17,853 nt of DNA from the NCBI GenBank assembly GCA_043817485.1, contig JBDRGX010000003.1, positions 1 to 17,853 of the forward strand. Reading direction: 5' to 3'. Numbering within the stretch: the first letter of the stretch is position 1; each line of letters starts with the position of its first letter. The stretch comes from JBDRGX01 sp043817485 [NCBI: bacterium] (GTDB taxonomy: Bacteria; JBDRGX01). Below are positions 2,592 to 16,954 of the stretch, in pieces. The position numbers and the translations under genes are program-made. Under the pieces are notes generated by a model, which had not been told where the DNA came from, did no database searches, and worked only from the letters and a program-made list of their open reading frames with translations.

Positions 2592-2706
2592 CGGCTTTTT
2601 ATGTCCCCCGCTGGCGGGGGTGTCCGTTAGGACAGGGGGTGGAATTCTTTAATACATTTCCATTACCTTCTATCCACCTTGTTATCATTTTAAATGCAAC
2701 TGTATT
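2572..2706. repeat. GC-rich palindromic repeat, copy 1
   Basis: Intergenic element in the 313-nt space between pilB and tRNA-Tyr. It opens with AACTGTATTGGTTTTGTCA and CGGCT. A perfect hairpin CCCCCGCTGGCGGGGG follows (2605-2620), then a second one, TGTCCGTTAGGACA (2621-2634), then GGTGGAATTCTT. The 9-mer AACTGTATT recurs at the right end (2698-2706). Separately, an 11-bp inverted repeat TTGCATTTAAA (2557-2567) / TTTAAATGCAA (2689-2699) brackets most of the element. The opening block, the GTCCGTTAG hairpin region and GGTG..AATTCTT are shared with 5323-5467, in the same orientation. The element codes for nothing evident. It could be a small non-autonomous mobile element or a structured RNA. 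Confidence 0.75.
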
Positions 2707-6848: not shown

Positions 6849-8624
6849 CTAAAAATCCATTGCATCATAAATAGATTTATTTAAACCAAAACATTGTTTA
6901 TCTAAAGAATGTTTACTCATAATAACTTGTGCTTTTAAAAGAGATTGCATTTCTTCTAAAGAACGATAATTAAATGGATTTAATTCTAATAATCTTTTTT
7001 TTGAAATCCCTTCTACTTCTATTGGCATTAAAACTTTATTTCCCCAAATAGGATGTGATTCATATTTAACCGCTCCTCTTGCTGCTTGAAGTAAAAAAAG
7101 TTCTGTTTCTTCAATAGAAGGACTTTCTCCTCCTATTGGTTTATTTTTGCCATTTACTTCAATGAATTTAACTTTAGGAAAATTTATTTCATTTTCTCCT
7201 ATTTTTTTTTGGTCCCATTCATATTCTGCTCCAATTCTTCCAGTAGTATTAATTTGATATACTTCTATTGGATTATTTGTTTCTTTTCGTTTTACCAAAA
7301 ATTGATGAAATCTATTTACATGAGCACTACACCCAACTCCTATAGTAAAAGGTAAACAATATCTACTTTCATATTTTTCTTCACCTACACCTTTACTTCC
7401 TTGAGATGGATGTCCAATAGTTCTACCATCTGCTAAAACTTTAGCTGCAAAATTCATATCATTTATTTTTAACCAAGCAAAATCAGAAATATATCCCTGA
7501 CTAATAAATACAGCCATATTAAGAGGTTCTGTAGAATTGACATTACCATCATAATAACCTGTATCATTAAGATAAAAAACTGTTCGTGCATTTCTATTAA
7601 GTTTATTATGATATTGATACAACTTACCTTTAAAACTTACATCTCCATTTTCATCAAATTCAGTGTTTTCATGAAGTGCTCTTTTAGCCATTCCAGCAGT
7701 AAACATAGCAATTTGAGTTTCATTAACATCTTCTGTTTTTGACCAAGCACCTCTTTCTGGAGATTCTACTCTATCTTCAAAAATTCCAATAATATCATCA
7801 TTTTTTATTACTTGATCAGAAACTAAATCCAAAACATTTATTCCAAATTTATCTTTATAAATAGATTCTGTTTTTTCATTAAATATATACATTCCATGTG
7901 TTGATTTTCCACTACCTGATAATCCCCAAGTACCCATTACTATTCTTTTTTTCTTGTTATCAATTTTTTTTACTGTAAATTCTTTTAAAGAAGCATGTTC
8001 ACCAGTACCACCTTTTTTATAAACATTGTAAATCCAATGAGAAAGAAATCCTTTTTTACATTCTCCTTGATACGAAGAACAAGTAATGATTGTATAATTA
8101 TAATGAGGAAATCTAATTATTTTAAGCATTTCTGAAGTATTTGAAATAATTGGATTTTCTAAATAATGAGGAATGCAAAAAATAGTAGCATCTGGTTCTC
8201 CTTCAAAGGTTCCATTAAAATTTAATTCTTTCCATCTATAAGCAATGTCTGGAAATTGTGGATCTATATATAAACGAGCTTTCATTTCTGAATAAGAATC
8301 TGGTTGTCCTAAATTAGCATCAACTTGAATTAAAGGTCTACAAAGAATTTGTTCTAAAACAGTATTCATTAATTCTTTGCATTCAGAAGTTAAATCTTCT
8401 TCTTTATCTATTACCAAAGAACCCGCAGCACTTCTACTCCAAATATTTGATGCCCAACCATAAGAACCATTTTTATATTGAATCCCATATAATTTAGCCC
8501 TATCTAATAAATCTTTTGGATTATTAATAATAGAAATAATTCCCGCATTATTTTTTATTTCTATTATTTTTTTAAAAATATTTAAAAAATTAGATATCGT
8601 AATTTCTTCTTTTTTAATTAACAC
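6849..8624 (-). CDS. Divergent ATP-type phosphoenolpyruvate carboxykinase-like protein
   Basis: Predicted P-loop enzyme of the PEP carboxykinase fold, which interconverts oxaloacetate and PEP. The family is clear only in its core. Numbered from the chosen start, YQGECKKG (185-192) matches the catalytic double lysine segment GE.KKG. GEHASLKEF follows, with a histidine where a metal-ligand histidine is expected. GLSGSGKST (234-242) replaces the classical GLSGTGKTT, and SDQVIKNDD stands near the metal-binding Asp region. ALHENTEFDENGDVSF and NARTVF match LLENV..DGTIDF and NTRVSY of the E. coli enzyme. Regions outside the core are unlike E. coli PckA, so it may belong to a separate related family; DUF4914 is one I would test. 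The GTG at 8624 has AAGGAG 6 nt upstream and is preferred over the ATG at 8681, which would add 19 hydrophobic residues. The product is 591 residues and lies directly upstream of lysC. Confidence 0.75.
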   Translation of the reverse strand: MLIKKEEITISNFLNIFKKIIEIKNNAGIISIINNPKDLLDRAKLYGIQYKNGSYGWASNIWSRSAAGSLVIDKEEDLTSECKELMNTVLEQILCRPLIQVDANLGQPDSYSEMKARLYIDPQFPDIAYRWKELNFNGTFEGEPDATIFCIPHYLENPIISNTSEMLKIIRFPHYNYTIITCSSYQGECKKGFLSHWIYNVYKKGGTGEHASLKEFTVKKIDNKKKRIVMGTWGLSGSGKSTHGMYIFNEKTESIYKDKFGINVLDLVSDQVIKNDDIIGIFEDRVESPERGAWSKTEDVNETQIAMFTAGMAKRALHENTEFDENGDVSFKGKLYQYHNKLNRNARTVFYLNDTGYYDGNVNSTEPLNMAVFISQGYISDFAWLKINDMNFAAKVLADGRTIGHPSQGSKGVGEEKYESRYCLPFTIGVGCSAHVNRFHQFLVKRKETNNPIEVYQINTTGRIGAEYEWDQKKIGENEINFPKVKFIEVNGKNKPIGGESPSIEETELFLLQAARGAVKYESHPIWGNKVLMPIEVEGISKKRLLELNPFNYRSLEEMQSLLKAQVIMSKHSLDKQCFGLNKSIYDAMDF

Positions 8625-8713
8625 TTTTTTCTCCTTATTTATGTTTTGTAAGTTTATAAAAATACAAATATAGATTATCATATTTTTGCAATTATAAACC
8701 AGTTATATTTTTT

Positions 8714-15868: not shown

Positions 15869-16954
15869 TTATAATTTCTTTAAAAACCATTGCCATGATG
15901 TTTTTATTATAAATTCAATATCTTCACATTGTCTTTTCCAACCTAATTCTTTTTTAATTTTTTCTGAACTGGCAATTAAAACTGGAATATCTCCTTCTCT
16001 TCGAGAAGTTATTTTAACCAAAACTTTTTTTTTAGTTACTTTTTCTACTTTATCAATTATTTCTTTAACAGAAAATCCTTTTTCACTTCCTAAATTATAA
16101 ATTTTACTTTCACAATTTTTATTTAATAAATATTCTAATGCTAAAATATGAGCTTGTGCTACATCATTTACATAAATATAATCTCTAATACAAGTACCAT
16201 CTTTTGTTAAATAATCATCTCCATAAATTTCAAAAATTTCTCTTTTTTCTAATGAATCTACCACACCATAAATGGAGGGGGATCTTCTCTGTAAGGAAAA
16301 TATATTATTATTGTGCCAATCCATCCCCGTCTCAAAAGACGGGACATTCTTGGCACTCCCAGATAAACTTTTTAAAATTTTTGGAATAAGATGTGTTTCG
16401 GGATTATGATTTTCTCCAATTTTACCAGATGGCTCAGCTCCTGCAACATTAAAATACCGTAAAGCAATATACTTTAATCCATAAGCTTTATCAAAATCTT
16501 CTAATATTTGCTCTATTATTAATTTAGTTTTTCCATAAGGATTTATTGGTTTTGTTTTTTCATTTTCTTTAATAGGAATTTCTTCAGGAATACCATAAAC
16601 TACTGCAGTTGAAGAAAAAATAATTTTTTTAACATTATGTTTTATCATTGAATCAAGAAAATTTAAACAATTAACAACATTATTTCGATAATATTTATTT
16701 GGATTTTTTATAGATTCTTCTACAGAAGTATTAGCAGCAAAATAAATTACAAATTCTATTTGATTTTCTTGAAAAATCCTTTCCATTAAATTAATATCAC
16801 CAATATTCCCTTGTATAAATTCTCCATAAAGTACATGTTCTTTTTTGCCTTGACTTAAATCATCAACAACAATAATAAAATATCCCTTTTCTCCTAACAT
16901 TTTCACTACATGAGATCCAATATAACCTGCTCCACCTGCAACTAAAACTTTCAT
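15869..16954 (-). CDS. galE: UDP-glucose 4-epimerase GalE with an internal 38-residue insertion
   Basis: NAD-dependent short-chain-dehydrogenase-fold enzyme that interconverts UDP-glucose and UDP-galactose, supplying UDP-Gal to the glycan locus. NAD binding is shown by VLVAGGAGYIGSHVV (3-17). The catalytic residues are in FSSTAVVYG (113-121, Ser/Thr) and PYGKTK (139-144, YxxxK). Substrate contacts lie in YFNVAGAEP and GTCIRDYIYVND (253-264). The protein has 361 residues against about 325 for close homologues. The excess is residues about 199-236, between HLIPKILKSL and KREIFEIYGDDY, which are adjacent in ordinary GalE proteins. The frame is kept through the insert, and both catalytic and NAD sites are intact, so activity is plausible. 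The ATG at 16954 has AAGGA upstream and follows the DUF3108-like gene by 6 nt. Confidence 0.95.
   Translation of the reverse strand: MKVLVAGGAGYIGSHVVKMLGEKGYFIIVVDDLSQGKKEHVLYGEFIQGNIGDINLMERIFQENQIEFVIYFAANTSVEESIKNPNKYYRNNVVNCLNFLDSMIKHNVKKIIFSSTAVVYGIPEEIPIKENEKTKPINPYGKTKLIIEQILEDFDKAYGLKYIALRYFNVAGAEPSGKIGENHNPETHLIPKILKSLSGSAKNVPSFETGMDWHNNNIFSLQRRSPSIYGVVDSLEKREIFEIYGDDYLTKDGTCIRDYIYVNDVAQAHILALEYLLNKNCESKIYNLGSEKGFSVKEIIDKVEKVTKKKVLVKITSRREGDIPVLIASSEKIKKELGWKRQCEDIEFIIKTSWQWFLKKL
16247..16360. repeat. In-frame palindromic element inserted in galE
   Basis: About 114 nt that add about 38 codons to galE without breaking the frame. By hand count it is 48 of 114 bases G+C (42%), far above its surroundings. 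It uses codons rare in the rest of the window (gcc, gtc, ccg, acg, ccc, tcc, ggg). The right half is a nested inverted repeat. GTGCCAA (16313-16319) pairs with TTGGCAC (16350-16356), a 6/6 internal loop follows, and CCCGTCT (16326-16332) pairs with AGACGGG (16337-16343) over a 4-nt CAAA loop. Borders are estimated from the expected GalE alignment and may be off by a few codons. No clear target duplication is visible. Confidence 0.75.

What the first reader, a model, noticed from the sequence alone, without database searches (positions are those of the whole stretch)
16247..16360. In-frame GC-rich palindromic element expands galE by about 38 residues
Seen: GalE has 361 residues. The segments HLIPKILKSL and KREIFEIYGDDY, normally adjacent, are separated by about 38 residues. 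The inserted DNA is about 42% G+C with codons unlike the host gene, and contains a nested 44-nt inverted repeat. Known: Rickettsia palindromic elements insert in frame into protein genes and are tolerated in surface loops. Inference: this is an analogous element, in a loop between a helix and a strand of the GalE substrate domain, possibly still mobile as DNA or RNA.
Basis: partly seen in the sequence, partly recalled or inferred. Interest (0 to 1): 0.78.

Follow-up and report, generated by a model that had tools for sequence, protein, structure and literature searches.

The report
Palindromic repeat inserted in-frame in galE
In an AT-rich bacterium known only from this stretch of DNA, a 114-base GC-rich hairpin-forming piece sits in-frame inside the sugar-enzyme gene galE and probably adds 38 residues as a floppy loop; it looks like a DNA repeat tolerated inside a protein, as known from Rickettsia, but further copies could not be looked for because the genome is not held.

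Summary
GalE (window 15869-16954, minus strand) carries a 38-codon in-frame insert at 16250-16363. 67 of 67 distinct homologues have 10-14 residues where this protein has 51. The insert is 42% G+C against 24%, and its codon usage lies below all 4388 same-size windows of 12 neighbouring genes. It contains a 44-nt nested palindrome (z about -6.3, 0 of 200 shuffles). AlphaFold2 gives a confident GalE fold with the insert as a low-confidence loop.

New here: an intergenic palindrome at 2601-2645 and one on a viral contig (L054) share both ends with the galE palindrome, ATGTCCC...GGGG-N-TGGA (18 of 19 positions, 0 of 3000 shuffles). But a plain local alignment of insert and intergenic island is not significant (174 of 2000 shuffles).

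Best reading: a palindromic repeat inserted in-frame and tolerated, working like RPEs or intragenic REPs, not shown to be a member of either. Mobility is not shown: no second copy of the insert was found, and the host genome was not available.

The parts
15869..16954 (-). galE, UDP-glucose 4-epimerase, 361 aa, otherwise intact
   Evidence: TIGR01179 425 bits, cut-off 262; residues invariant in the 43-sequence alignment A3 include S115, Y140 and K144
16250..16363 (-). in-frame insert of 38 codons, residues 198-235
   Evidence: 51 residues against 10-14 in 67 of 67 homologues; composition and codon usage
16313..16356 (-). 44-nt nested palindrome: outer arms GTGCCAA/TTGGCAC, inner stem CCCGTCT/AGACGGG
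   Evidence: position; DNA folds on both strands, z about -6.3, 0 of 200 shuffles
16318..16347 (-). 30-nt core with ends ATGTCCC...GGGGATGGATT shared with the intergenic element
16364..16366 (-). Leu197 codon TTA just before the insert, one half of a 3-nt direct repeat
   Evidence: could be a target duplication or chance
16250..16252 (-). Leu235 codon TTA at the end of the insert, other half of the 3-nt direct repeat
2601..2645 (+). intergenic palindrome with two hairpins and the same ends, between tRNA-Tyr and a T2SSE (PilB-like) gene
   Evidence: a relative in viral contig L054

Best explanation
A short GC-rich palindromic repeat of the REP/RPE kind, together with about 70 nt of accompanying sequence, went into galE at a TTA codon. 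Shown: it is an insertion relative to the homologues examined, it is in-frame and free of stops, and its composition is not that of the host genes. Shown with moderate strength: its 30-nt core shares both ends with an extragenic palindrome on the same contig and with one on a viral contig, the galE copy lacking the first of two hairpins. Inferred: the gene stays functional because the 38 extra residues are translated as a disordered surface loop between the helix after HLIP and the strand IYG, so selection only removed out-of-frame or stop-containing insertions. Inferred: the DNA hairpin, not the peptide, is what was moved, by an enzyme encoded elsewhere (a HUH/RAYT-like single-strand transposase would fit a hairpin substrate; none was found) or by repair.
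For: 67 of 67 distinct homologues lack it, and three PDB GalEs break there. Third-position G+C 45% against 6%, and codon score below 4388 of 4388 overlapping 38-codon windows of 12 genes. Palindrome z about -6.3. AlphaFold2 mean pLDDT 90.7 with residues 203-211 and 215-233 under 50. 323 of 361 residues superpose on 8wxk_C at 0.9 A (with low-confidence stretches trimmed before alignment). Ends shared with 2601-2645 and L054: 18 of 19 consensus positions, 0 of 3000 shuffles, largest 17. L054 shows that the two-hairpin module recurs on another contig: 22 nt identical, same ends, hairpin 2 kept although its loop and stem letters differ. Precedent: intragenic REPs (PMC3733652, one section read) and RPEs (PMC2229807, one section read).
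Against: No copy of the galE insert was found anywhere searched. The plain local alignment of insert and intergenic island is not significant (174 of 2000 dinucleotide and 130 of 2000 mononucleotide shuffles score as high). The end signature was noticed by comparing the two, so its test is partly after the fact. A scan for the ends in viral contigs gave 21 stretches; 20 of them lie in stop-free frames of 107 codons or more and look like chance matches in coding DNA (L184 does form a clean single hairpin), and only L054 shows the two-hairpin module. The stricter galE-like pattern gave one chance match (L055). No terminal inverted repeats are seen, and the only candidate target duplication is 3 nt. 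Low pLDDT in the insert is also what is expected simply because no homologue covers it.
Confidence: 0.68

Rival explanations
1. A one-off capture of foreign DNA that happens to hold a hairpin: illegitimate recombination or repair put about 111-114 nt of unrelated sequence in the loop. It is not a repeat family at all.
For: No second copy of the insert found; local alignment with the intergenic island not significant; the 70 nt outside the palindrome have no known relative.
Against: The end signature shared with 2601-2645 and L054 and the strong nested palindrome.
Confidence: 0.23
2. The insert is in the mRNA but not in the protein: ribosomes hop from TTA (Leu197) to TTA (Leu235) over a stable hairpin, giving a segment of exactly the commonest length in homologues.
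For: Identical TTA codons bound the insert; skipping 114 nt would leave 13 residues, the commonest length (38 of 67); the hairpin starts a few codons after the first TTA.
Against: The insert is open and in-frame, so no hop is needed; known hop elements (T4 gene 60, mitochondrial byps, recalled) need not be in-frame. TTA is likely in DNA with 24% G+C, and a 3-nt repeat is also what a target duplication would give.
Confidence: 0.04
3. Assembly artefact: a chimeric join or a foreign read in the contig.
For: The source record is not named, and nothing here shows read support.
Against: In-frame, no stop, inside an otherwise intact gene, bounded by a 3-nt repeat; a chance join would seldom keep the frame.
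Confidence: 0.04
4. A conserved extra domain or old lineage-specific loop of GalE.
For: Loop length varies slightly between homologues (10-14).
Against: None of 67 homologues has it; a tblastn of 37 of its residues finds only matches at E of about 2 in plasmids; third-position G+C 45%. Close relatives of the host could not be examined.
Confidence: 0.01

Closest known systems
Rickettsia palindromic elements (RPE)
   Same: A palindromic element of 105-146 bp (PMC2229807), in-frame in conserved protein genes and also intergenic; one host protein shown to be translated and active
   Different: No multi-copy family shown here; not compared with RPE sequences; the host is not identified
Intragenic REPs (GTAG- and CGTC-tagged, PMC3733652)
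   Same: A short hairpin with extragenic and intragenic copies; more than half of the intragenic inserts there are dimers or groups that encode 20-30 residues, with clusters of 43-82
   Different: No GTAG or CGTC tag beside the 44-nt palindrome: CGTC occurs inside the stem, and one GTAG occurs near the far end of the insert; ends are ATGTCCC...GGGG-N-TGGA
Translational hop elements (T4 gene 60, mitochondrial byps; recalled)
   Same: A hairpin-bearing insert between identical codons
   Different: In-frame and stop-free, so hopping is not required

Membership tests
Rickettsia palindromic elements | palindromic element of about 105-150 bp | tested here: met
   114 nt with a 44-nt nested palindrome; size range from PMC2229807. 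Only part of the insert is palindromic.
Rickettsia palindromic elements | in-frame in a conserved protein gene that stays intact | tested here: met
Rickettsia palindromic elements | sequence similarity to an RPE family | not tested
   no RPE sequence was fetched; no Rfam match at the gathering score in the insert
Rickettsia palindromic elements | many copies in one genome, in unrelated genes | not testable with these tools
   no whole genome is held for the window; one extragenic palindrome with the same ends in 17.9 kb
REP (GTAG or CGTC superfamily) | unpaired GTAG or CGTC tag at one end of the stem | tested here: not met
   by reading the sequence: the 44-nt palindrome is flanked by GGGA and AATAA; CGTC lies inside the stem; a GTAG lies near the 3' end of the insert, far from this palindrome
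REP (GTAG or CGTC superfamily) | associated RAYT transposase gene in the genome | not testable with these tools
   genome not held; 13 of the 17 listed ORFs of the window were scanned against Pfam or NCBIfam and none is one
MITE | terminal inverted repeats and target duplication | tested here: inconclusive
   no terminal inverted repeats seen by eye at the borders of the 114 nt; 3-nt TTA direct repeat
Translational hop element | insert absent from the protein | not testable with these tools
   needs protein data

The most novel reading that the evidence does not exclude
The galE insert is a member of a palindromic repeat family (ends ATGTCCC...GGGG-N-TGGA, one or two hairpins) that spreads between and inside genes of a very AT-rich bacterium, and in galE the ribosome skips it by hopping from TTA to TTA, so that a selfish DNA repeat is hidden from the protein.
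Probability: 0.04. Interest if true: 0.85.

Novelty: new variant of a known kind. Interest (0 to 1): 0.42.

Why it matters
In-frame palindromic elements are best known from Rickettsia, with other cases among REPs. A case in a very AT-rich bacterial contig, with a different palindrome and an extragenic palindrome with the same ends on the same contig, would help to test whether proteins routinely take up DNA repeats as loops, and whether the moved unit is the hairpin. GalE is a good test protein: solved structures are many and its assay is standard (recalled).

Tried and rejected
Copies of the insert: exact and gapped patterns in viral contigs gave 0; blastn against plasmids gave no match and against phages only 20-29-nt matches at E 0.1 to 6. 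A galE-like pattern gave L055, a chance match without the hairpin. Of 294 archaeal genomes (phylum of G002) 0 hold a pattern like the core, but these are not the host's relatives and the result says little.

RAYT link: I recalled that AAGAATGTCCC-like ends occur beside RAYT genes. Y1_Tnp matches were found in 0 of 12 and 57 of 148 archaeal genomes, but of the 85 loci then held only L016 has AGAATGTCCC. Dropped. I also recalled a similar repeat architecture near DUF559 genes; a paper search for it listed 2 papers, neither about such repeats by title and abstract. Both are memory only.

Plasmid matches to the intergenic hairpin: of the Klebsiella and Raoultella ones I opened one (H28), whose two copies about 60 nt apart beside csf2 I read as type IV CRISPR repeats, not relatives. 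The Pseudomonas match that I opened (H21) lacks the ends. Phage matches to it cover at most 42%.

GalE in archaea: 0 of 41 genomes at E 1e-40, not informative. Rfam: no match in the insert at the gathering score; four sub-threshold matches in 15900-16700 are chance. Paper search for three strings of these repeats: 4 papers, unrelated by title; only the listing was seen. Other paper searches gave the three papers cited; otherwise only their listings were seen.

Rows left out before the count: of 80 loci, ten (L097-L100, which look like repeats of L096; L105 and L107, same contigs as L046 and L047; L102, L116, L118 and L154, partial matches); of 6 loci, L047 and L049 (same proteins as L046 and L048) and L051 (27% identical, also without the insert). 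73 were used, 67 distinct. A3, used for the fold, holds 42 of these 67 plus the window protein.

Full report
What is there. The window is 17,853 bases at 24.3% G+C and codes for bacterial genes: cysS, rlmB, an aspartate kinase, murB, galE, glycosyltransferases and a T2SSE (PilB-like) ATPase. galE lies at 15869-16954 on the minus strand, 361 aa, 425 bits to TIGR01179.

The insert. Between HLIPKILKSL and EKREIFEIYG lie 38 extra codons, residues 198-235, window 16250-16363. In an alignment with 67 distinct homologues from viral contigs, the stretch between HLIP and IYGDDY is 51 residues here and 10, 13 or 14 in all 67 (20, 38 and 9 of them; rows left out are told under Tried and rejected). PDB GalEs 8wxk, 4twr and 2c20 align in two pieces with the break at this point. 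The 60 plasmid GalE matches listed, of 1290 records, are shorter than the query by 35-41 residues. Of the 20 phage matches listed, of 264 records, 11 are shorter by 36-39 and 9 by 20-29; the nine were not inspected at the site.

Composition. The insert has 42.1% G+C, the rest of galE 24.3%; at third positions 44.7% against 6.2%. Its mean log codon frequency is lower than in all 4388 overlapping 38-codon windows of 12 other genes of the window (the gene at 170-805 was not among them). As a stretch of this size its G+C is in the top 1.4% of the window; the other GC-rich islands are the two tRNA genes, one intergenic island and two milder ones in cysS and murB.

Palindrome. 16313-16356 is a nested inverted repeat, arms GTGCCAA/TTGGCAC around CCCGTCT/AGACGGG. 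The 54 nt around it fold as DNA on either strand with z about -6.3 and 0 of 200 shuffles as good.

A palindrome with the same ends in the same contig. The intergenic island 2557-2681 holds a two-hairpin palindrome (its own fold is modest, z -2.1 and -2.4). Both it and the galE core match ATGTCCC-N(4-34)-GGGG-N-TGGA-W-T, expected 0.00 times in shuffles of the window; this pattern was written after seeing both. A viral contig, L054, found by a 22-nt stretch of the intergenic hairpin, has the same two-hairpin module with the same ends; hairpin 2 reads GTCCGTTAGGAC in the window and GTCCCACAGGGAC in L054, a stem in both. With a consensus of the ends taken from those two elements, the galE insert scores 18 of 19, reached by 0 of 3000 dinucleotide shuffles of the insert, largest 17. 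In a three-way alignment the galE core reads as the same element without hairpin 1. Against this: an ordinary gapped local alignment of insert and island is matched or beaten by 174 of 2000 shuffled pairs, and a viral-contig scan for the ends gave 21 stretches of which 20 look like chance matches in open frames of 107 codons or more, with L054 the one clear exception. I therefore rate the kinship as likely, not proven.

Structure. AlphaFold2 on an alignment of 43 sequences: mean pLDDT 90.7, pTM 0.88; stretches under 50 are 203-211 and 215-233, between helix 189-198 and strand 241-244. No aligned homologue covers the insert, so low confidence there is expected in any case. Foldseek and VIA-align 2 list GalEs first; 8wxk_C: Z 49.9, rmsd 0.9 A, 323 residues aligned, after low-confidence stretches were trimmed. 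That the loop is at the surface is inferred; exposure was not computed. That the following strand contacts uridine in E. coli GalE is recalled.

Borders. The insert lies between two TTA codons, a 3-nt direct repeat; this was the only shared suffix of 3 nt or more for lengths 108, 111, 114 and 117 and starts within 12 nt. Removal of 114 nt from TTA to TTA would leave 13 residues, the commonest length in homologues. This fits a short target duplication, and also a ribosomal hop, which nothing requires because the insert is open. By chance 1308 of 20000 shuffles are open in that frame, so openness with the right length would be seen in roughly 2% of random inserts, but only tolerated inserts are ever seen.

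Comparison with known kinds. RPEs are 105-146 bp palindromes found in-frame in Rickettsia proteins and between genes; a guanylate kinase with one is translated and active, with changed substrate affinity (PMC2229807, abstract and section on RPEs read; PMC10969869, passages). REPs inside genes are known from several species; more than half of those inserts are dimers or groups that encode 20-30 residues, and clusters encode 43-82 (PMC3733652, abstract, passages and one section read). The galE insert works like these. It is not shown to be a member: it lacks the REP tag beside its palindrome, copy number is untestable here, and RPE sequences were not compared.

Verdict. It is a new variant of a known kind if the family is confirmed in the genome.

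Noticed in passing
window 6849-8681 (-): A PEPCK-like protein whose 45 of 45 confirmed relatives in the genome collection are archaeal, best 65% identity, in an otherwise bacterial contig (the scan finds close relatives only): likely a transfer from archaea.
   Followed up: partly
window 2601-2645 (+): An intergenic two-hairpin palindrome with a clear relative in a viral contig of 50% G+C (L054): a module that recurs in different backgrounds.
   Followed up: yes
L053 540-720: Two copies, about 60 nt apart, of GTATGTCCCCCGCTGGCGGGGGTTATCGG on a Klebsiella plasmid beside csf2, read as type IV CRISPR repeats whose hairpin resembles the intergenic palindrome by chance.
   Followed up: partly
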